From the NCBI RefSeq assembly GCF_900176205.1, contig NZ_LT859959.1:1550001-1614000 (forward strand): a stretch of 64,000 nt of DNA. Reading direction: 5' to 3'. This DNA is from Bradyrhizobium sp. ORS 285. Lineage in GTDB: Bacteria > Pseudomonadota > Alphaproteobacteria > Rhizobiales > Xanthobacteraceae. Under the pieces are notes generated by a model, which ran no database searches, was not told the DNA's origin, and was given only the letters and a program-made list of their open reading frames with translations. Shown here one piece after another: positions 15,655-64,000 of this stretch. How positions within the stretch are numbered: the first letter of the stretch is position 1; the number at the start of each line of letters is the position of its first letter. Both the position numbers and the translations under genes were made by a program.

Positions 15655-16002
15655 AAAGAGGGCAAAGGTAAAGTGGAGGCTTCTGTTGCCAGGTGCCTCC
15701 GAACCCCGCCTAACGGAGCTTAACCCGTTAGGACTTTAAGGTGGTCTTTCAAACTGCGTTACGCAGCCTGAGCAACCGGAGCAAAGTTGTCGTTGGCAAC
15801 TATTGCAGTAGCCCGATAACGGCGGAACAATACCGGGAAAAAGCTCGCCCTTTACGCCCTCGTCGATCCTATTTCGCCCCCGCCAAAACCCGTCTCAGTC
15901 ACTTGCTTATCGGGTCGGGCTTTGGTGGAGGCGCCGGGTACCGCCCCCGGGTCCGAATGGTTTATTTCGACGGCGATTTATTTCCATAGCCGGCAAGCCG
16001 GC
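15655..16002 (-). ncRNA. ssrA: Transfer-messenger RNA, two-piece circularly permuted form
   Basis: Read on the minus strand, a tRNA-like acceptor piece ends in GGCGCCTCCACCA (3' end at 15923), followed by a ~41-base spacer and then the coding piece, which opens GGGGGCGAAATAGGATCGACG-like from 15881. The proteolysis tag is at 15797-15759: GCC AAC GAC AAC TTT and on to TAA, giving ANDNFAPVAQAA. This acceptor-before-coding order is the permuted alphaproteobacterial arrangement, processed into two RNAs. Downstream, CCTAACGG/CCGTTAGG and GGAGGC/GCCTCC form the pseudoknot-type stems. A TATATT -10 box at 16014-16009 supports a 5' end near 16002. The 3' limit near 15655 (a short T-run) is approximate. 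Confidence 0.92.
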
Positions 16003-16135
16003 ACGCTCAATATAGGCTGGCGGCAGCCCGCTGCACAGGGTCGAAAAGGCGCAGTCCTCGACAAAAATGTGGGTCGTTGCGGGGAACCTTTCGATCGCGC
16101 TTGGCAGCCCGAATTTTGTGCTCCTAGATGGCTGG

Positions 16136-42987: not shown

Positions 42988-44766
42988 ATGACAGGATCTG
43001 ATGTCCTTGATCTGCCGGCATGCGCCGGCGAGGGGCGCCTCCTGATCGACCGCCTGATGTCACTGACGCCGAACCACGAACCGATCACGACGCTCACCGC
43101 GGGCAGCGCCACTCGCTCAGCCGCGGTGCGGTTCTCCGCCGTCGCGGCGCCGCATGTGGCCGCGCTCGCCCTGATGCTGCACACCGAGACCGATTTCGGC
43201 TCTCGGCTCGGCTTCCTGCTGGCCTGGGGCATCCTGAACGGCTTCTGGCTGGTGCTGCTGCGGCGGCCGGCGGTGTCGGGCGCGCTGGCGCTGACCATGG
43301 TCGTGGTGCTGGTGCTGCTGTCCCAGCTCAAGCATGCCGTGGTCCAGATGACCGCGAACTTCGTCGACGTGATGCTGATCGACCATGACAGCGCGGCGTT
43401 CCTGTTCACGATCTTCCCGAACCTGAAGCTGTCGGTGCTGGTGGCGGCGGCGGTCGTATTGCCCTTGATGGGTCTGTTATGGTGGGCCGATCCGTTTCGC
43501 GTGGCGCGGCTGCCCGCGCTCGCGGGCAAGCTCGCCTGCCTCGCGGCGCTGACGCTGTATTCGCTCAACTGGCGCGACGAGGCGTGGCGCGGCTATTACG
43601 ACGACGGCTATCTCTCGAAATTCGCGCGCTCCGGCGTCACCGCCGTGTCGGACTTCCTCGCCAACGGCTTCATGGAGTCCGATGCGACGGCCGACCGCAA
43701 GCTGGCGGCCTTCGTCCCGGATTCCTGCCATCCCGCCGGACGGCGGCCGAACATCGTGCTGATCCATGACGAGTCGAGCTTCGACATCCGCTCGGCTGAT
43801 GGCATCAAGGTGCCGGACGGCTATGGCAGCCACTTCAAGTCGTTCGACGGCAAGGCGCGGCAGTTCATGGCCGAGAGCAATGGCGGGCCGAGCTGGTTCA
43901 CCGAGTACAACGTGCTCGCCGGTCTGTCGTCGCGCTCGTTCGGCCGCTTCGCCTATTTCGTGACGCGGATCGCGTCGGGGCGCGTCGAGCGCGGCCTGCC
44001 GCTGGCGCTGCGCAATTGCGGCTACGACACCGTGTCGCTGTATCCCGCGCATGGCGCCTTCATGAGCGCGCGCAGCTTCCAGACCACGGTCGGCGTCGAC
44101 CGCTTCCTGGACGCGCGCGATCTCGGCGCCAAGGGTGTCGAGCCCGACGGCTTCTTCTACGACGCCGCGCTCGATTTGATGCAGCAGCGGCAGCGCAACA
44201 AGCCGCTGTTCATGTTCGTCTATCTCGCCGCCAATCATTTCCCCTGGGAGACGACGTTCCGGCCCGACCTGACGCCGTCCTGGCGTGCGCCGGGCAATGG
44301 GCCTGCGATCGACGAATATCTGCGCCGCCAAGCGATGAGCGCGTCGGACTATCAGCGCTTCCTCGCCAATCTGAAGAAGCGCTTCGGCGACCAGCCGTTC
44401 CTGATCGTGCGCTACGGCGATCACCAGCCGGAGTTCTCGCCGCACATCCTGGATCCCAAGCTCGACGAGGCGGGCATCGGCGAGAAGCTCGAGAGCTACG
44501 ATCCGCGCTATTATGCAACCTATTATGCCGTTGACGCCGTCAATTTCGAACCGCGCCAGAGCAGCGTCGTGATGGATAGGATCGACGCCGCCTACCTGCC
44601 GCTGGTCACGTTGGAAGCCGCCGGCATTCCGCTCGACCCGTCCTTCGCCGAGCAGAAGGACATCATGCTCCGCTGCAAGGGCGTATTCTACGCCTGCGGC
44701 GACGGCGCCGAGGCGCGCCGCTTCAACCGTATGCTGATCGACGCCGAGCTGATCCGCGGGCTTTAG
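42988..44766 (+). CDS. Membrane sulfatase-superfamily enzyme, phosphoethanolamine/phosphoglycerol-transferase-like
   Basis: The 592-aa protein has four to five membrane segments (about 50-195) and then an alkaline-phosphatase-superfamily domain starting at NIVLIHDESSFD (255-266), where D261/E262 fall in the metal-binding turn. Later blocks VYLAANHFPWE and IVRYGDHQPEFS are the usual metal ligands of sulfatase/LTA-synthase-type transferases. Such enzymes modify lipid A or periplasmic glycans with a phosphoryl head group. The last ~52 codons occur again at 47044-47199, beyond an inserted cassette (see findings). The copy attached here ends normally with a TAG at 44764. Confidence 0.82.
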   Translation: MTGSDVLDLPACAGEGRLLIDRLMSLTPNHEPITTLTAGSATRSAAVRFSAVAAPHVAALALMLHTETDFGSRLGFLLAWGILNGFWLVLLRRPAVSGALALTMVVVLVLLSQLKHAVVQMTANFVDVMLIDHDSAAFLFTIFPNLKLSVLVAAAVVLPLMGLLWWADPFRVARLPALAGKLACLAALTLYSLNWRDEAWRGYYDDGYLSKFARSGVTAVSDFLANGFMESDATADRKLAAFVPDSCHPAGRRPNIVLIHDESSFDIRSADGIKVPDGYGSHFKSFDGKARQFMAESNGGPSWFTEYNVLAGLSSRSFGRFAYFVTRIASGRVERGLPLALRNCGYDTVSLYPAHGAFMSARSFQTTVGVDRFLDARDLGAKGVEPDGFFYDAALDLMQQRQRNKPLFMFVYLAANHFPWETTFRPDLTPSWRAPGNGPAIDEYLRRQAMSASDYQRFLANLKKRFGDQPFLIVRYGDHQPEFSPHILDPKLDEAGIGEKLESYDPRYYATYYAVDAVNFEPRQSSVVMDRIDAAYLPLVTLEAAGIPLDPSFAEQKDIMLRCKGVFYACGDGAEARRFNRMLIDAELIRGL

Positions 44767-44798
44767 GGGTCTGCAGAGAAAATCTCAGGTCTGCTCAA
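44611..44798 (+). repeat. Direct repeat, left copy: 3' end of the sulfatase-type gene plus ~30 bases
   Basis: This segment aligns base for base with 47044-47232 through the stop codon and GGGGTCTGCAG, and more loosely to AGGTCTGCT. Over the last ~156 coding bases the copies differ at seven places, all synonymous. The offset is exactly 2433 bases. The repeats bound the three-gene cassette. Confidence 0.93.
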
Positions 44799-45241
44799 GA
44801 CGACTTTTTCCCCGTTTCTTTGTAGACGTCAACGACGTCACTCTTAAGCCGAGATGGAGTCGTTTTTGATTTTTTGGCGGTCGATGCTTTAGCCTTTGTG
44901 GGTGCAGGCGACGGCAATGCGGAGCCATCGGCTAAGGCGTTGAGGTGGTCTCGACGCCAGCCTGCGCTGCTCTTTTTCAACTCCGGGTGATGTTTGTCGA
45001 GCCGGGTGACAACGCTCTTGACTTCAGCGTCCTTCAGTCCCTCAAGGATCAAACCGAATTGGGATGTACCCAGTGCTTCTCGGACGTCGCGCAGCACGTC
45101 AAGTCCGATCGATTTGTGCTTAAGGCACTTGACGAGAAGCGCTCTAGCTTGCTTGTCGACATCAGCTCGGATCGGGGCAAAAAGATTCGCGTGTTTGCCG
45201 ACCTGCTCGAATACTTCAAAGCCGTTAAGCGCGATTGGCAT
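44795..45241 (-). CDS. Cassette gene C: small protein with a basic lysine-rich tail
   Basis: The 148-aa product has a predicted helical N-terminal ~105 residues (GFEVFEQVGKHANLFAPIRA, DVLRDVREALGTSQFGLILE, VKSVVTRLDKHHPELKKS) and a tail of about 40 residues rich in Lys, Ala, Thr and Ser (PTKAKASTAKKSKTTPSR). Such tails often bind nucleic acid. I recognise no family. The ATG at 45241 is preferred because AGGAG lies 9 bases upstream; the ATG at 45250 lies directly against it. It overlaps the ParA gene end by 17 bases, so the two are coupled. Confidence 0.72.
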   Translation of the reverse strand: MPIALNGFEVFEQVGKHANLFAPIRADVDKQARALLVKCLKHKSIGLDVLRDVREALGTSQFGLILEGLKDAEVKSVVTRLDKHHPELKKSSAGWRRDHLNALADGSALPSPAPTKAKASTAKKSKTTPSRLKSDVVDVYKETGKKSS

Positions 45242-46118
45242 CGAGAGCATCTCCTATCTCTCGGACCAAGTCCGACAATAGCGGAGCAAGGGCCGATCCC
45301 CATTTTTGGGTGAAGCTTGGAAATCTATCAATTTGGCTGAGCGCATTTGCGATCGAAACCGCTTCGGGTATCTCCGTCTCGAAGACATGGAAAGCAGGCT
45401 TCGTTGCCGTTGCTTCGTTACGAAGCAACTCTGCTGTTTGCGCGTGAATTTTGACCTGTCTACGGCGGGTGATGAGGACGTGAGGTTTTCGAGGAGTCCT
45501 TCTTGCACCCTCTAGACCCCGATCGGAGAGGGCCGCGCAGAACGTCTGCAGGCCGAAGGTCGATAGAAAGTCCGCAATGGTCGGGACAATCACGAGATCG
45601 GCAAGTCTAATGCTGACCTCCGTAAGAACCGAGATGCCCGGAGCGCAGTCGATTAGGATGAAATCAAAGGCTTTCTTTTGCTTTAGCAGCTGGGCGTTCA
45701 CGACACCTGAGAGGCCTCTGACGATCTCTGACCAACTCATTCTACGCTGCGTCAGGTCGTGAATGATCCGTTGTTCAAAATGCCTGAGATTCGGACTAGA
45801 TGGCAGCAGCGAGATTGGGAGCTGCTGATTGAGGTGCGTGACGTTACTCACGTTGTTGCGAATACATTCGTTGAATGCCAGTTTTTTGTCGCCAAGTAGG
45901 TTGTTTTCGAGGAACCCTTCGATGGTTGCCTTTCGCGCGATCAAGGTGGCCAGCAAGGAATCACCAGCGAGGCATATCGATGCGTTCGCCTGGGGATCGA
46001 GGTCGATGACGAGAGTCCGATTTCCGGAGGCAGCCAGGGCTTCAGCTAGGGATACGACTGTTGTCGTTTTTCCAACGCCACCTTTCATATTGGCTACGGC
46101 GATGACTCTCGCGTTCAT
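45225..46118 (-). CDS. Cassette gene B: orphan ParA/Soj-type ATPase
   Basis: This 297-aa deviant-Walker ATPase shows KGGVGKTT (12-19) with signature lysine K12, Walker A' DLDPQAN (39-45) and Walker B FILIDCAPG (153-161). ParA proteins form ATP-dependent dimers and bind DNA, usually to move plasmids or large complexes. No ParB partner or centromere-like repeat is visible. Instead it lies between a PD-(D/E)XK-like gene (2 bases upstream) and a gene for a small basic protein, all leftward. Codon use is less GC-rich than in the flanks, in keeping with transfer. Confidence 0.9.
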   Translation of the reverse strand: MNARVIAVANMKGGVGKTTTVVSLAEALAASGNRTLVIDLDPQANASICLAGDSLLATLIARKATIEGFLENNLLGDKKLAFNECIRNNVSNVTHLNQQLPISLLPSSPNLRHFEQRIIHDLTQRRMSWSEIVRGLSGVVNAQLLKQKKAFDFILIDCAPGISVLTEVSIRLADLVIVPTIADFLSTFGLQTFCAALSDRGLEGARRTPRKPHVLITRRRQVKIHAQTAELLRNEATATKPAFHVFETEIPEAVSIANALSQIDRFPSFTQKWGSALAPLLSDLVREIGDALDANRA

Positions 46119-46120
46119 GC

Positions 46121-46918
46121 TTAGGGAGCCTCAAGTGCAGTCCGCAGTAGTTTCACCTCGCGAAGATCCAATCGCTGCTCAAGGAAGCCGTCGACCGCGG
46201 CCTGAGGCGTCGACTTTCGTACCGGATCGAGAATGGTTTCGAATTTCTCGTCGTCTTTAGGGTCGTGAATTCGGATCAGCCCGACGCCATGCTGGCTGCA
46301 CTGCGCGGTGATCTCCTGCAACCGGGCTTGAGCCGCGGAGTCTCTGGGCAAGTGCCAAACAAGATAGCCAAAATGGGTGAACCGTGTCTGAGCTAGGGCT
46401 TCGTAGACGGCAAGATCGGTTGCTCCAAACTCTGCCTTGAGTTCAAACGAATAAACGTCGAGCTGGGCGCCCGGCATGATACGAAACCTCATAGCCGTTG
46501 CGAGAATGAAGTCAGGCCGTGCCCAGCGGCCTAGTGGCGGGCCGATCCGCGAGGTGTCTTTCACGAGACACACGCCATGCTTGGGGATATCCAACTCGTT
46601 CTGAAACGGTCCCGTCAGGTATCGTTCCAGATGCGGCATGAGTTGAATCTCAGATAGTGCATCGCTGGGTTCCGCCCGTGGAGCGCGCCCGCTCTCGTCT
46701 TTCGCGAGGAATACTTGGCCACCTTGACCACGGAGTCTACCAATCTGTCCTGCCTCGGACAGGAGATCCCGAGCTTTCTCATAGAGATCGTCTGGTATTG
46801 TCTGAGCAAAGTCACGCGACAACATAACGCGCAAAACCCGATTGAGCACAGGTGTGCCATCAGGAGGCAATAGTGCTTTTAGGCGGTCTGCAACCGCCCG
46901 AGCGGAAAGCGCAGGCAT
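46121..46918 (-). CDS. Cassette gene A: PD-(D/E)XK nuclease-like protein
   Basis: A 265-aa protein of no family I can name. The middle has a likely PD-(D/E)XK core: SEIQLMPHLERYL (helix with E90), RPDFILATA (D136), then YSFELKAE with E159 and K161, and helix VYEALAQTRFTHFGYLVWH. The D-to-ExK distance of 23 residues and the following helix with Q177 fit the fold. The N-terminal ~65 residues (ADRLKALLPPDGTPVLNRVLR, DDLYEKARDLLSEAG) look like a helical DNA- or protein-binding part. The C-terminus is helical. It is first in the cassette operon, with the ParA gene 2 bases downstream. Nuclease activity is inferred only. Confidence 0.72.
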   Translation of the reverse strand: MPALSARAVADRLKALLPPDGTPVLNRVLRVMLSRDFAQTIPDDLYEKARDLLSEAGQIGRLRGQGGQVFLAKDESGRAPRAEPSDALSEIQLMPHLERYLTGPFQNELDIPKHGVCLVKDTSRIGPPLGRWARPDFILATAMRFRIMPGAQLDVYSFELKAEFGATDLAVYEALAQTRFTHFGYLVWHLPRDSAAQARLQEITAQCSQHGVGLIRIHDPKDDEKFETILDPVRKSTPQAAVDGFLEQRLDLREVKLLRTALEAP

Positions 46919-47043
46919 TCACCATGTCCCAACCAGCCGCAACCTTAAAGAGAACTCTCAATACCTGCAAGATTTACTGTGGCTGGACGGGGCTCAGGTG
47001 ACTTCTGCATACTGGGCCCGCTGGCAATAGCAGCGACTTTACC

Positions 47044-47232
47044 TGGAGGCCGCCGGCATTCCGCTCGATCCGTCCTTTGCCGAGCAGAAGGACATCATGC
47101 TCCGCTGCAAGGGCGTGTTCTACGCCTGCGGCGACGGCGCAGAGGCGCGCCGCTTCAACCGCATGCTGATCGACGCCGAGCTGATCCGCGGGCTTTAGGG
47201 GTCTGCAGCGAGACAGATTGAGGTCTGCTCCA
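47044..47232 (+). repeat. Direct repeat, right copy: detached 3' end of the sulfatase-type gene
   Basis: The segment keeps the last ~52 codons (LEAAGIPLDPSFAEQKD through the same TAG at 47197-47199) but has no start or upstream part, so it is a remnant not expected to be translated. Compare 44611-44798. Confidence 0.93.
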
Positions 47233-47325: not shown

Positions 47326-47721
47326 ATGACGTCGTCCGTCAAGGAGATGCTGGCCGCGGCCAATGCCGCGGTGCCGAAGATCACGCCGGCCGAGGCGAAG
47401 GCGATGATCGCCAAGGGCAACACGCTGGTGCTCGACGTGCGCGATGCGCCGGAGATCGAGAAGAGCGGCAAAATCGAAGGCGCCCACCACGTCTCGCGCG
47501 GCATGCTCGAATTCCGCGCCGATCCGGACTCGCCGTATCACGACAAGGCCTTTGCCAAGGACAAGACCATCATCCTGTATTGCGCCTCCGGCGGCCGCTC
47601 GGCGCTGTCGGGCAAGACGCTCAAGGATCTCGGCTACGACAAGGTGTTCAATGTCGGCGCGTTCAAGGACTGGGCCGAAAGCGGCGGCCCGGTCGACAAA
47701 CCGATCGAGGCGGGGATGTAG
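47326..47721 (+). CDS. Single-domain rhodanese-like protein
   Basis: This 131-aa protein is one rhodanese domain, with the substrate-loop cysteine in YCASGGRSA (85-93, C86) and the upstream LVLDVRDAPEIEKSGKIEGA block. It would transfer sulfur from persulfide or thiosulfate to a thiol acceptor; the partner is unknown. The ATG at 47326 has a GGGAGG site 6 bases upstream; the longer frame to 47218 enters the sulfatase remnant. It follows the cassette directly. Confidence 0.9.
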   Translation: MTSSVKEMLAAANAAVPKITPAEAKAMIAKGNTLVLDVRDAPEIEKSGKIEGAHHVSRGMLEFRADPDSPYHDKAFAKDKTIILYCASGGRSALSGKTLKDLGYDKVFNVGAFKDWAESGGPVDKPIEAGM

Positions 47722-47827: not shown

Positions 47828-47918
47828 CCGTCATCGCGAGCGTAGCGAAGCGATCCAGGGGCGACACAGATGATGTGCATTTTAGCCCCTGGATTGCTTC
47901 GCTACGCTCGCAATGACG
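47828..47918. repeat. Inverted repeat, GTCATTGCGAG family, copy 2
   Basis: Arms CCGTCATCGCGAGCGTAGCG and CGCTACGCTCGCAATGACGG with inner GATCCAGGGG/CCCCTGGATT. It is the same family as 29383-29463. Confidence 0.75.
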
Positions 47919-47944
47919 GTGGTGAACAGTGTCGCCCCACCACG

Positions 47945-59778: not shown

Positions 59779-61572
59779 ATGGGTCGCCGTGGTGTCAGAA
59801 GCGTTGGGAGGTCTGCGGAGCGGCGCGCCGAGGCGATCGCGCCGTGCGGCTTGCGGCTGCCCGGAGGGGCCGCGGCGGCTGGGGTTTCGCTGCTCGCAGC
59901 CCTGTTCACGAGCGGCGTCCATGCGCAGCAGGTCGGCCAGCCGAGCTTCGATCCGCGTCAGACCGAGAAGTACTTCGACGAGCAGTCGCGTTCGCCGCAG
60001 CCGGCGCCGCCGCGCCCGCGCGCGCCTCAGTTCAGCACGCAGGGCGGGGGCGATCATAAGCCTCTGTTCACCATGCGCGGCGTCATCCTGACGGGAACCT
60101 CGGCCCTCTCAGCCGACCAACTCGCCGCGACCTATCAGCCTTACATCGGCAAGCCGGTCTCGCAGGCCGACCTCGCCGCGATCGCATCAGCAATCAGCGA
60201 TCAGTACCGCGCCGCCGGGTTCCATCTCAGCCGGGCGATCATTCCGCCGCAGGACATCAGCAACGGCCGGGTGCGGATCCAGGTCATCGAAGGCAGCATC
60301 ACCGAGGTGACGCTGAAGGGCGAGGGCGCGGAAGAATTCGGCATCCGGCCGATGCTCGGCCCGGTGCTCGCCGAGCAGCCGTCGCGCCTCGCGACGCTGG
60401 AGCGCCAGCTGCTGCTGATCAACAGCCGCGGCGGCGTGCGCCTGGTTGATTCCGCGCTGGAGGAGATCGGTGGCTCCACCGGCCGCTTCCGCCTCGTGCT
60501 CGAACTCAAGACCTGGCACGTCTACGGCTCTACGGGCTTAGACAATCTTGGCTCGTCGACCGTCGGTCCCTGGCAGAGCTACGCCACGGCGGCGTTCAAC
60601 TCCTATCTGTTGCCGGGCGACACGCTTACCGCCAACCTGTCGACCACCCCCGGCGATCCGCGCCAGCTCGTGTTCGGACGCTTGTCCTACGACGTGCCGG
60701 TCGGCACCGACGGCGTCCATGTCGGCGCGTCGGCGCTGTACAGCGAGGTGCGGCCGGGCGACATCAGGCGGCGCTTCAACGACAACACCGTCACCGAGAC
60801 GGTCGAGCTGCGCGGCGGCTTCGCGCCGATCCAGTCACAGTCCGCCTCGTTGAACCTGACGGTCGCCGCGGCCTTCAGCGATGTCACCGAGCGCGACGTG
60901 TTCGGCATCTGGTATCGCGACCGCATCCGGACGCTGACCTTCACCGGGGATTATCGCTGGAAGGATGAGCTCGGCGGCGACAGCTATCTGACCCTGGCGT
61001 ACCGGCAGGGGCTCAATGCCTTCGGGGCGACACCGGCCGGCGATGTCATGGCCTCGCGCCCCGACGCGTCGCCGAGCTTCGCGGTGGTCAACGGCTGGTT
61101 CACGCGCTACCAGACACTGTCCGATGCGTGGTCGCTGAAGATCGCCGCTGCCGGCCAGCTCGCATCGGGCCCGTTGTACAATTCGCAGCAATTCTATCTC
61201 GGCGGCCTGTCCTACGGCCGCGGCTATGGTAGCGCCGAGCTCAGCGGCGACAATGCCGTTGCCGGCACGTTCGAGGTCCGCTTCGAGCAGAAGCCGGACT
61301 GGACCTATCTGAAGAGCTATCAGCTCTACAGCTTCTTCGATGCTGGGCTGGCCTGGAATGACGGCTTCCGTCCCTCGGACGGCGTGGCGCTGACCTCGGC
61401 AGGCGGCGGCGTGCGCTTCACCTTCCCCAACGATTGGCGCGCCGATCTCGGCGTCGCCGTCCCGCTCGGCTACCGCGCCCCCGACAACACGCCGCGCAGC
61501 GCGCGCTTCCTGCTGTCGCTGTCGAGCGTGCTCAAGCTGTGCCCGCAGCGCGGGCAGGGGCCTTGCATCTGA
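59779..61572 (+). CDS. ShlB/FhaC/HecB-type two-partner secretion outer-membrane transporter (TpsB)
   Basis: A 597-aa outer-membrane protein with a long signal peptide (about 1-49, GVHA/QQ), a Pro-rich N-terminal helix region, a POTRA domain (about 92-170; HLSRAIIPPQDISNGRVRIQ, VIEGSITEVTLKGEGAEEF) and a beta-barrel to the C-terminal F-containing strand. TpsB proteins export one large haemagglutinin-like partner (TpsA). No such gene appears in the window on either strand, so the partner must be elsewhere or beyond the edge. The gene is divergent from the FecR-domain protein with 127 bases between starts. Confidence 0.9.
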   Translation: MGRRGVRSVGRSAERRAEAIAPCGLRLPGGAAAAGVSLLAALFTSGVHAQQVGQPSFDPRQTEKYFDEQSRSPQPAPPRPRAPQFSTQGGGDHKPLFTMRGVILTGTSALSADQLAATYQPYIGKPVSQADLAAIASAISDQYRAAGFHLSRAIIPPQDISNGRVRIQVIEGSITEVTLKGEGAEEFGIRPMLGPVLAEQPSRLATLERQLLLINSRGGVRLVDSALEEIGGSTGRFRLVLELKTWHVYGSTGLDNLGSSTVGPWQSYATAAFNSYLLPGDTLTANLSTTPGDPRQLVFGRLSYDVPVGTDGVHVGASALYSEVRPGDIRRRFNDNTVTETVELRGGFAPIQSQSASLNLTVAAAFSDVTERDVFGIWYRDRIRTLTFTGDYRWKDELGGDSYLTLAYRQGLNAFGATPAGDVMASRPDASPSFAVVNGWFTRYQTLSDAWSLKIAAAGQLASGPLYNSQQFYLGGLSYGRGYGSAELSGDNAVAGTFEVRFEQKPDWTYLKSYQLYSFFDAGLAWNDGFRPSDGVALTSAGGGVRFTFPNDWRADLGVAVPLGYRAPDNTPRSARFLLSLSSVLKLCPQRGQGPCI

Positions 61573-61678
61573 TAATTTGTGGGGGGCTGCGGCAGCAATG
61601 TCCGCTTCCTCCAACAGCTGGTGGCCATTCACCTGGATCAGGGCTCCGAAAGCGGCCGCTGAGCGGCCTCTCTCGAGG

Positions 61679-61858
61679 TCAGCCGTCCGACTTCTCTACG
61701 TCAGGTGCCTGGAGGCTGGTGTCGGGCGCCTGCTCCCTTTTGGCCGTCAAGTCGGCCGCCTTGTCGAGCAGGGCAAGGGCAACGTCCGGGTCGGTCGTCG
61801 CCTTCGCGAACTTGAAAAGGGTGGTGGCCTGGTCCGCCAAATACTTCTTCCCAACCAT
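61679..61858 (-). CDS. Small helical protein of unknown function (59 aa)
   Basis: A short frame reads MVGKKYLADQATTLFKFAK, continues ATTDPDVALALLDKAADLTA and ends in an acidic tail at a TGA. The pattern of paired helices with a short N-terminal basic start resembles small proteins common in Bradyrhizobium, whose function is unknown. A GGCAAC rather than a strong Shine-Dalgarno site precedes the ATG. It stands alone, leftward, in the AT-richer stretch after the TpsB gene. Confidence 0.6.
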   Translation of the reverse strand: MVGKKYLADQATTLFKFAKATTDPDVALALLDKAADLTAKREQAPDTSLQAPDVEKSDG

Positions 61859-62408
61859 GTTGCCTGGTCCCCAAATACCACTCGATATCCATACGCCGGA
61901 ACCAGGATTCCGTTCCGTTGGTCAACAGCGACCTTCCGGGCGGCCCGGCATTTTTACTTCGGGTTCCCGAGAGGCGGGTTAAATCAGAGGCTGCAAATGG
62001 TCTCGGATTGGGTTTCGGATTGTATTGTCGTTGTCTATTTTCCTACCGTCGCCCACACTTGTATGTCCTCGCCAATCAGCAAGCAGCAGTGCAACGAAGT
62101 GGCGCAGGGCGCCCTGGTCGGCTCATTGACATACAGCGATACGATCTCATTCCAGCTGCGGCCCGATGGGAGCCTCAGGATGAGGCGGGCTCCGTTGTAT
62201 CGGCCATCCAGACGCGAGCGGCAGCGCTGAAGAGATCGCCAGTGCGATCTGGTGGGATCGCACGGGTTTGCCAGATGGAAAGTGAATATTTCTGCCAGGG
62301 GCCAAAAGCGGGTTTGCCTCCCACAATTGCCGACAATCGGCTGCACCCCGAAAGCACACATCGCGAGTGCCGAGCGGAAGGTCCGAGATGTGCCGAATGA
62401 GAACCCGA
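61859..62408. other. Intergenic 550 bases with no supported gene
   Basis: Frames on both strands read through this stretch, but none shows a recognisable domain or a good start. It is AT-richer than the left part of the window. Remnants of a transferred gene cannot be excluded. Confidence 0.4.
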
Positions 62409-62627
62409 TTACAGGGAGGTCAACAACCTCCGCGCCATCGAGAACAGGCCTATCGACCAGCAGACCGGGCATCCTCGAAAGGCGATCAATGATACGAGCC
62501 CCAGAGCGACGGAGCCTAGGACTGCAGGCCAACCTGCGCCTGTCCCGACCCACACCGCCGTTGAGAGGGAGACAATTCCGACAAGACCTCGGATGAGGTG
62601 CTCGGTGAACGAACTGCTGGCGAACAT
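62409..62627 (-). CDS. DUF2892-like small membrane protein with a CPxC motif, second copy
   Basis: This 72-aa protein has two hydrophobic segments (GLVGIVSLSTAVWV and WPAVLGSVALGLVSLIAF) and then RGCPVCWSIG with a CPxC pair, matching the YgaP-type membrane anchor family DUF2892. It starts 9 bases after the ECF sigma factor stop in the same direction and so is the third gene of that operon. The cysteine pair facing one side of the membrane invites a redox role, which is inference. Confidence 0.75.
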   Translation of the reverse strand: MFASSSFTEHLIRGLVGIVSLSTAVWVGTGAGWPAVLGSVALGLVSLIAFRGCPVCWSIGLFSMARRLLTSL

Positions 62628-62636
62628 TTTTAATCC

Positions 62637-63161
62637 TCAGCGCATCATATATTCGCGCACGAGCGCTCGGCCGCGATGCAGTCGGGCCTTCACGGTTTCC
62701 CGGGTCAGCTCCAGCGATTGCGCGATTTCGCCAATCGTCATTTCGTCCACATCCCGCAAGATGAGCACCTGCCGGTAGTGGCTCGGCAGCGATTGGATCG
62801 CGGCAGCTATATCGATGCGAAGTTCCGATTCTGGTTTCTTCGCAAGTTGCAGGTCGTTTTCCAAGGAAGAGACGTCATCGGGAATGCCGATATGCTGCTT
62901 TGCCAATCTCAAGCAGGTTCGATGAACGATCTGAAAGAGCCAGATGGAAAAGGCTCCGGCTCGTTGGAGACGACCAATGCGCCGGTACACGATCCATAAC
63001 GTTTCCTGAACCGCGTCTTCCACATCGCTTGTCGTGCGGCAGGTTCTTCGCGCGTACCGGCGTATGTCGGGCTGCGATATTTTGAGCAGCGTCAGGATGG
63101 CGTCGGCGTCCCCGCCGATTGCCGCCTCCATCGTGCCCGGCGATAAGAGACGAGTGCTCAT
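62637..63161 (-). CDS. ECF-type RNA polymerase sigma factor
   Basis: The 174-aa protein has sigma region 2 (about 25-95; DVEDAVQETLWIVYRRIGRL, GAFSIWLFQIVHRTCLR) and region 4 (about 115-170; LPSHYRQVLILRDVDEMTIG, SLELTRETVKARLHRGRALV) and lacks regions 1 and 3, as in ECF sigmas. No standard anti-sigma gene follows. Instead its ATG overlaps the stop of a DUF2892 gene (ATGA at 63158) and another DUF2892 gene follows. One of these small membrane proteins could act as regulator; this is untested inference. Codon composition is AT-richer than the core chromosome. Confidence 0.92.
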   Translation of the reverse strand: MSTRLLSPGTMEAAIGGDADAILTLLKISQPDIRRYARRTCRTTSDVEDAVQETLWIVYRRIGRLQRAGAFSIWLFQIVHRTCLRLAKQHIGIPDDVSSLENDLQLAKKPESELRIDIAAAIQSLPSHYRQVLILRDVDEMTIGEIAQSLELTRETVKARLHRGRALVREYMMR

Positions 63162-63367
63162 GGTTCAGCGCGCAGCTTTCGGCCCGCGAGGGCGCAAGCC
63201 GGGCAGTATCCAAAAACGCCCGTCAGCGCGGTCATGACTCCGACACCGGCGATCAGGTATGCGACGGGCATACCTTTAAGTCCGAGCAGCCCACAAGCGA
63301 TCATTATTGCCCCGGCTAAGAGCCGGACCCAACTTTCCCATCCAGCCACGTTCTTCCTGTAAAGCAT
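63158..63367 (-). CDS. DUF2892 small membrane protein with a CPxC motif, first copy
   Basis: The 69-aa protein reads MLYRKNVAGWESWVRLLAG, then two hydrophobic segments and GYCPACALAGRKL with a CPxC pair; this is the DUF2892 membrane unit found in YgaP-type rhodaneses. I took the ATG at 63367, which has an AGGAGG site 5 bases upstream; the longer frame has no such support. It is the first gene of the operon and overlaps the sigma factor gene by 4 bases. Confidence 0.82.
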   Translation of the reverse strand: MLYRKNVAGWESWVRLLAGAIMIACGLLGLKGMPVAYLIAGVGVMTALTGVFGYCPACALAGRKLRAEP

Positions 63368-63699
63368 CGTCACCTCCTGCCTTAGTCGCGTCGTTTCTGA
63401 CGCTCCGGAGACATAGAGGCTTGAAAGCCGAGAAACGGTTCGCGGCTCCGGAAAAAAATCTGAGTCAGGCTGGTCCAGAAGCTGGCGGTCGGCGGGCGGC
63501 GTGAAAAGGTCTGCTCCGTGTCTATAGCTGCCTTCTGGTAGCCGATGGCTTGCTTCCGGTTGAGCCTCGGAAGCGGACCTTGCCGGGGGGCGATCAGAGG
63601 TCCGGTATGGGCCACAAGGAGACATTGCCAACTCGGCCGCACCTGTGGCTTTCTCAATTCGCTATAGCTCAAGTCGGCCCCTTTGCTAGAGGCAAGACA
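63368..63699. other. Divergent promoter region at the right end
   Basis: The 332 bases separate the leftward DUF2892-sigma operon from the rightward partial gene. I see no gene. Promoters for both should be here, but no consensus box stands out. Confidence 0.4.
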
Positions 63700-64000
63700 T
63701 GCCAGGACCATCTACAAGAGACGTGCATCATCTGCCTGACATCGTCTCATTGAAGCGGCTGCTTCAATCAGTCGCGATGCTTGATGCAATCATCTGCCCT
63801 GACTGGGAGTACCGTTACTACTCTTTCAACGCCAATTGGGCCGCGGGAGAAATGATGGGCTCAATGCGGAATGGCCAAGGCGACGAATTTTTCGTATTGT
63901 TCAATTCTCATGGTGCATTCATCAAAGGCTTTGATCACGGGTCGGTCGTAGCGTCCCTAAGATTACCAGGTCAGCAGTTCTATCGCGATCTGCCTGGCCA
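63700..64000 (+). CDS. Partial protein of unknown function, cut by the window edge
   Basis: The frame opens MPGPSTRDVHHLPDIVSLKR and continues to the last base without a stop (100 codons seen). Blocks ICPDWEYRYYSFNANWAAGE, MRNGQGDEFFVLFNSHGAFI and GFDHGSVVASLRLPGQQFY are rich in aromatic residues and compositionally convincing. Similar uncharacterised bacterial proteins exist to my recollection, but I cannot name a family. GAGGCAAG 4 bases upstream may be the ribosome-binding site. The base composition is AT-richer than the core of the window. Confidence 0.72.

What the first reader, a model, noticed from the sequence alone, without database searches (positions are those of the whole stretch)
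44611..47232. A compact ParA / PD-(D/E)XK / basic-tail cassette inserted at the 3' end of a gene
Seen: three leftward genes (46918-46121, 46118-45225, 45241-44795) with 2-base spacing and a 17-base overlap, inside a 2433-base insert bounded by direct repeats. Composition differs: hand count gives 32 G+C of 60 at 45361-45420 against 41 of 60 at 44041-44100 in the host gene. Known: orphan ParA ATPases and PD-(D/E)XK proteins occur in anti-phage and anti-plasmid loci, but I know no described system with exactly this trio. Inference: an autonomous defence or plasmid-interference unit, in which the ATPase would power or position a nuclease and the basic protein would bind DNA. No recombinase is present, so movement would rely on host or phage recombination.
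Basis: partly seen in the sequence, partly recalled or inferred. Interest (0 to 1): 0.85.

Follow-up and report, generated by a model that had tools for sequence, protein, structure and literature searches.

The report
Mobile ParA–nuclease gene cassette
A three-gene unit (a predicted DNA-cutting enzyme, a ParA-type motor and a small DNA-binding-like protein) has been inserted at the end of a bacterial gene; the same trio recurs at different places in related bacteria and in one pair has swapped parts, as immune systems do, but its function is untested.

Summary
Three leftward, abutting or overlapping genes lie in a 2.4-kb, low-GC insert at the 3' end of a sulfatase gene, flanked by 168-nt direct repeats (96%). 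In 6 of 9 nearest relatives the sulfatase runs straight into the rhodanese gene that follows the insert here: an empty site. Gene 1 is a winged-helix plus PD-(D/E)XK nuclease (model pLDDT 90), gene 2 a ParA ATPase, gene 3 a helical protein with a disordered basic tail. Genes 1 and 3 match no Pfam, NCBIfam or PADLOC family. The trio stays together in 15 of 15 other loci with strong nuclease matches, at about ten chromosomal sites (six identified by named genes). The nuclease was not found in the phage or IMG/VR collections. A second locus repeats the architecture at lon. Two sister genomes share the site and a 96% identical nuclease, but an abrupt breakpoint just after the ParA Walker A region swaps the rest of ParA plus gene 3. 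Best reading: a mobile DNA-interference (defence-type) cassette with a constant nuclease and an exchangeable ParA/basic-protein module, inserted with long target duplication as described for restriction-modification genes. Defence function is inferred, not shown.

The parts
46121..46918 (-). Gene 1: 265-aa nuclease; N-terminal winged helix (about residues 1-72) plus PD-(D/E)XK domain (about 89-250; E90, D136, E159, K161)
45225..46118 (-). Gene 2: 297-aa ParA-type ATPase, deviant Walker A KGGVGKT (K12, K17)
44795..45241 (-). Gene 3: 148-aa helical protein with disordered basic C-terminal tail, pI 9.8
44612..44779 (+). Left direct repeat: in-frame 3' end of the intact sulfatase gene plus 13 nt; imperfect match continues to about 44799
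47044..47211 (+). Right direct repeat: 5'-truncated copy of the sulfatase 3' end; imperfect match continues to about 47233
42988..44766 (+). Host gene: 592-aa sulfatase-family protein (PF00884), kept intact by the left copy
47326..47721 (+). Rhodanese-domain gene that directly follows the sulfatase in the empty sites of relatives
46919..47043 (-). Leader of the operon, presumed promoter region (inference; not mapped)
   Evidence: sequence only

Best explanation
The insert is a discrete, horizontally moving three-gene conflict cassette. Most likely it is an anti-mobile-DNA (phage or plasmid) interference unit. Shown by sequence: one operon-like array of a winged-helix PD-(D/E)XK nuclease, a ParA ATPase and a helical basic-tailed protein, kept together and found at several chromosomal sites. 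Shown: in this genome it lies between sulfatase and rhodanese, neighbours in relatives, with a ~170-190 bp duplication of the sulfatase 3' end. Shown in one sister pair: the nuclease stays constant while most of ParA and the third protein are replaced as a block. Inferred: ParA and the basic protein form the DNA-sensing or positioning module (ParA dimers on DNA, the basic protein as DNA-bound partner), which licenses or delivers the constant nuclease to foreign or wrongly behaving DNA. Inferred: movement uses host recombination, as proposed for restriction-modification genes that insert with long target duplication, not an element-encoded recombinase.
Against: No function has been tested. PADLOC has no model for the nuclease or gene 3. 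The named neighbours are mostly housekeeping genes and few of 99 neighbour ORFs match PADLOC. Only 2 of 16 trio loci show the duplicated gene end. The module swap rests on one sister pair of draft genomes, one of them 79% complete. Nuclease relatives without ParA exist, so the nuclease may act without the other two.
Confidence: 0.55

Rival explanations
1. The trio is the mobility machinery of a selfish element. The nuclease cuts near a gene 3' end, ParA and the basic protein hold or search DNA, and repair with a copied gene end as homology completes insertion (homing-like, or a distant echo of TnsA/TnsC).
For: Two independent insertions (sulfatase here, lon in L067) carry a copy of the same host gene's 3' end on the nuclease side, in the same orientation. 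The insert holds almost nothing but the trio. Recurrent use of HPr-ahcY and recJ sites.
Against: The other 14 of 16 trio loci show no such copy (L022 has only 100 bases on one side and could not be judged). No common end sequence was seen by eye. The two repeats differ in length (168 nt; 129 nt plus a separate 55-nt block). Sites are diverse. Long target duplications are described for RM genes (cited in PMC3031569).
Confidence: 0.15
2. Accessory DNA-repair or chromosome-maintenance operon: the nuclease resembles an MmcB-like fold (MmcB recalled) and ParA/basic protein organise DNA.
Against: Very patchy, several sites, module swapping, atypical GC: unlike a housekeeping repair operon.
Confidence: 0.13
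3. Modified-DNA or orphan restriction system, i.e. a Type II/IV-like nuclease with ParA as regulatory ATPase.
For: Nuclease domain closest to the Type IIS enzyme PaqCI; winged helix shared with a DNA methyltransferase; restriction-like insertion and module exchange.
Against: No methyltransferase in the trio or among the nearest neighbours scanned; substrate unknown. Overlaps with the main explanation.
Confidence: 0.12
4. Remnant of a plasmid or phage partition region carried along by chance.
For: ParA matches plasmid/phage ParA models.
Against: The same trio recurs at unrelated sites; no nuclease match in 50,697 phage records, no relative among IMG/VR candidates, 2 weak partial ones in 72,556 plasmids.
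Confidence: 0.03

Closest known systems
Restriction-modification gene complexes inserted 'with long target duplication' (Nobusato et al. 2000; Furuta et al. 2010; neither read, seen only as cited in passages of PMC3031569 and the reference list of PMC3874152)
   Same: Compact DNA-targeting gene group with a long direct repeat of the target; exchangeable target-recognition parts are known for Type I S subunits (PMC3077401, passages)
   Different: No methyltransferase; a ParA ATPase and a basic helical protein instead
PaqCI Type IIS restriction endonuclease, residues 3-176 (8em1)
   Different: 7% identity; here a winged helix precedes the nuclease
SPO1766 (3dnx); recalled to be MmcB-like
   Different: 146-residue chain without the winged helix; its gene context was not examined
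ParA/Soj partition ATPases (1wcv, 6iub)
   Same: Deviant Walker A ATPase; E 5.5e-16 to 1wcv and 1.9e-15 to 6iub
   Different: No recognised ParB partner; coupled to a nuclease gene
PADLOC candidates PDC-M30/M41 (DUF5131 pair)
   Same: Immediate neighbour of the trio in G172
   Different: Another kind of gene pair; no relation to the trio was seen

Membership tests
PD-(D/E)XK nuclease superfamily | Core fold with D ... (E/D)xK on adjacent strands | tested here: met
PD-(D/E)XK nuclease superfamily | Nuclease activity | not testable with these tools
   needs purified protein
ParA/MinD ATPases | Deviant Walker A KGGxGKT/S with signature lysine | tested here: met
   present in all 17 ParAs compared; AAA_31 E 4.9e-35
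Plasmid/chromosome partition (parABS) system | ParB-type partner and parS | tested here: inconclusive
   gene 3 has no ParB match; non-homologous partners exist; parS not sought
Known defence systems in PADLOC-DB 2.0.0 | Matching models for all components | tested here: not met
   none for the nuclease; P-loop or partial hits for ParA (PDC-M28B E 2.1e-9, mad8 E 0.014); E 0.034 for gene 3
Restriction-modification | Cognate DNA methyltransferase | tested here: not met
   none in the trio or among nearest flanking ORFs scanned by Pfam at 14 loci (several of those were wrong-frame ORFs, some rescanned); farther genes were not scanned by Pfam
Insertion with long target duplication | Long direct repeat of target DNA around the insert, empty site in relatives, no recombinase | tested here: met
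   window. L067 (lon): repeats only, no empty site sought
Tn7-like transposons | DDE transposase (TnsB) and short target duplication | tested here: not met
   insert is filled by the three genes; duplication is 168 nt
Integrative element with attB in a gene 3' end | Tyrosine or serine recombinase in the element | tested here: not met
   insert is filled by the three genes

The most novel reading that the evidence does not exclude
A new class of immune system in which a ParA ATPase and its basic partner act as an exchangeable sensor that reads how DNA is positioned or segregated, and hands non-chromosomal DNA to a dedicated nuclease: ParA patterning turned into self/non-self discrimination without DNA modification. 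It spreads as a bare three-gene unit with a copied gene end as homology arm.
Probability: 0.2. Interest if true: 0.88.

Novelty: new variant of a known kind. Interest (0 to 1): 0.62.

Why it matters
If the defence reading holds, this adds a ParA-based way of recognising foreign DNA, with no methylase to protect the host. It would make testable how a positioning ATPase can license a nuclease. The duplicated gene ends at two loci and the clean module swap give natural experiments on how recombinase-free gene units move and how their specificity changes.

Tried and rejected

PADLOC on 99 neighbour ORFs (E up to 1e-5) gave 14 families: PDC-S40 in 2 members, the other 13 in 1 member each (PDC-M41B and M30B, best E 1e-105, which one search places in G172; IetA, mad2, mad3, mad8, BrxL, TRIP13 and 2OG models).

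(tblastn without composition correction) was too noisy and discarded. In one search the rows L173, L176, L177 and L180 repeated the preceding row because of a strand bug; one search corrects this. L022's nuclease frame was wrong: L022 was left out of the ParA/gene 3 matrices and trees. L078 was left out of the matrices but kept in the trees.

Full report
OBSERVATION. The three leftward genes, their spacing and overlap, the flanking repeats and the composition shift are all real. The insert (44780-47043) has 54.6% G+C, below each of 309 sampled windows of its size. The repeats are 168 nt at 96%: the left copy completes the 592-aa sulfatase-family gene (PF00884), the right copy is 5'-truncated. 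Both translate to the same 50 residues and stop.

EMPTY SITE. The genome is a single 7.8-Mb contig. The nearest sulfatase genes are 88-93% identical (nine genomes). In 6 of those 9 (L173, L175, L176, L177, L179, L180) the sulfatase stop is followed within about 150 bp by the same rhodanese gene that follows the right repeat here. In 3 of 9 (L172, L174, L178) another sequence follows. None of these nine is among the 5 of 265 genomes with a nuclease match. So the cassette, plus one copy of the gene end, lies between two otherwise adjacent genes. Which copy is the newcomer cannot be told: of the six differences, two are private to the right copy and two to the left.

A UNIT. Of 29 distinct loci examined for neighbours, 15 of 15 with nuclease E below 1e-70 have all three genes in the same order and strand, overlapping or abutting. 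One distant locus (L078) also has all three. Five have nuclease and ParA; in 4 of those 5 a 116-128 aa third ORF follows, though no homology to gene 3 was detected, and the fifth runs off its contig. One (L023) is a partial nuclease-ParA copy. Seven (L064, L065, L066, L069, L072, L073, L074) have no ParA match, two of them mere fragments (L066, L074). In wider samples the distant alignment matched 10 of 260 genomes (class) and 14 of 269 (phylum), own genome included. In the 16 nuclease-type loci of these (plus 7 winged-helix-only ones) no ParA motif lay within the up to 1.5 kb held on each side, nor in the four wider regions read. So ParA plus gene 3 looks like an add-on module to a broader nuclease family.

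MOBILITY. Close, full-length copies occur in 2 of 265 genus genomes, own included (5 of 265 with any match). With the alignment: 18 of 391 (family sample) and 10 of 397 (order sample), three in each being winged-helix-only hits; 4 of 43 in genus g34, one winged-helix-only. No relative was confirmed among 44 IMG/VR candidates, none in 50,697 phage records, 2 weak partial ones in 72,556 plasmids. Sites differ: sulfatase (window), lon (L067), between tpiA and secG (L020), recJ (L060, L061, L062), azlC (L054, L056), HPr-ahcY (L055, L057, L058, L063), and four less well defined ones (L053, L059, L071, L022). In 16 of 30 ahcY loci of genus g34, HPr and ahcY lie under 400 bp apart, leaving no room for the cassette; in 3 the gap is 0.4-1.3 kb; in 11 HPr was not in view, two of these being trio carriers.

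SECOND CASE OF THE GENE-END DUPLICATION. In L067 the trio lies tail-to-tail with lon (Lon_C). Beyond the nuclease lies a partial lon copy: 129 nt at 96%, joined to a 55-nt block at 84% that matches the end of lon. Orientation and side are as in the window, the host gene is different. L067 is a short draft contig with two N at the start of the left repeat, so the outer limit there is uncertain. Of 16 trio loci only these two show it; loose searches at 12 others found no DNA match, L071 was covered only, and L022 lacks one flank.

MODULE SWAP. G265 and G311 (L060, L061) carry the trio at the same recJ site, with flanks mostly 87-97% identical in DNA apart from 78-79% next to the cassette. The nuclease is 96% identical and ParA residues 1-50 are 96-100% identical. 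Then identity falls to 16-72% per 25-residue block for the rest of ParA and 36% for gene 3; the flank is back near 95% about 150 bp after the cassette. Trees conflict: nuclease plus ParA N-terminus joins L060 and L061 (bootstrap 100); ParA C-part plus gene 3 joins L061 and L062 (bootstrap 100). Both alleles are open trios, so a mere assembly error is unlikely, but both genomes are drafts (98% and 79% complete) and they are the only two of their genus held. Exchange of one module beside a constant effector is what Type I restriction specificity subunits do (PMC3077401, passages read).

MECHANISM. Shown: gene array, fold model, motifs, insertion, site variety, one swap. Inferred: the nuclease cuts foreign DNA; ParA and gene 3 sense or position; movement uses host recombination. 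The mode of insertion resembles 'insertion with long target duplication' described for restriction-modification genes (the 2000 and 2010 papers were not read; seen as cited in PMC3031569 and PMC3874152). Support for defence is circumstantial: nuclease chemistry, patchiness, movement as a bare operon, module swap, and one neighbour pair that matches PADLOC candidates. Against it: most neighbours are ordinary genes and few of 99 match PADLOC.

VERDICT. A real mobile trio that I did not find described (listings of searches). I file it as a defence-type cassette with restriction-like mobility, function untested.

Noticed in passing
47828-47919: A 35-nt palindromic repeat pair (GCGAGCGTAGCGAAGC core) just downstream of the rhodanese gene, of the intergenic REP type (type recalled); the core was found only here in the window.
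   Followed up: partly
L071:3639-7066 (G172): DUF5131 gene and partner, PADLOC candidates PDC-M41/M30, lie directly upstream of the closest relative of the trio; next to them an ORF with HTH_38 and a weak integrase-core match, transposase-like.
   Followed up: partly
L079:6486-9746; L080:7587-10859: Proteins of about 1090 aa whose N-terminus carries the same winged helix as the trio nuclease; a DNA methylase domain was checked in L079 only.
   Followed up: partly
L225:5763-6479; L226:6587-7360: Winged-helix nuclease relatives without ParA in genomes outside the window's class but in its phylum; low GC3 contrast hints at recent arrival.
   Followed up: partly
L074:10783-10947 (G020); L066:9786-9914 (G398): Isolated fragments of the nuclease gene (71% and 65% identity) with no ParA or gene 3 match: probable decayed former cassettes.
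   Followed up: partly
HPr-ahcY intergenic region, L055, L057, L058, L063, L155: A recurrent landing site: besides the trio, other genes (a molybdopterin oxidoreductase in L057 and, by its end, L155; a 161-aa ORF; an SBP_bac_5 gene) sit near or between HPr and ahcY.
   Followed up: partly
99 neighbour ORFs of 15 trio loci (one search list): PADLOC candidate PDC-S40 matches two of them at up to E 4.9e-82; which two is not told by the tool.
   Followed up: no
15668-16018: tmRNA gene reported by ARAGORN with a flagged (asterisk) form and tag ANDNFAPVAQAA; a low-GC stretch at 12.5-14 kb lies nearby.
   Followed up: no
61501-64000: Second low-GC stretch (about 58%) at the window's end; not examined beyond an ORF list.
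   Followed up: no
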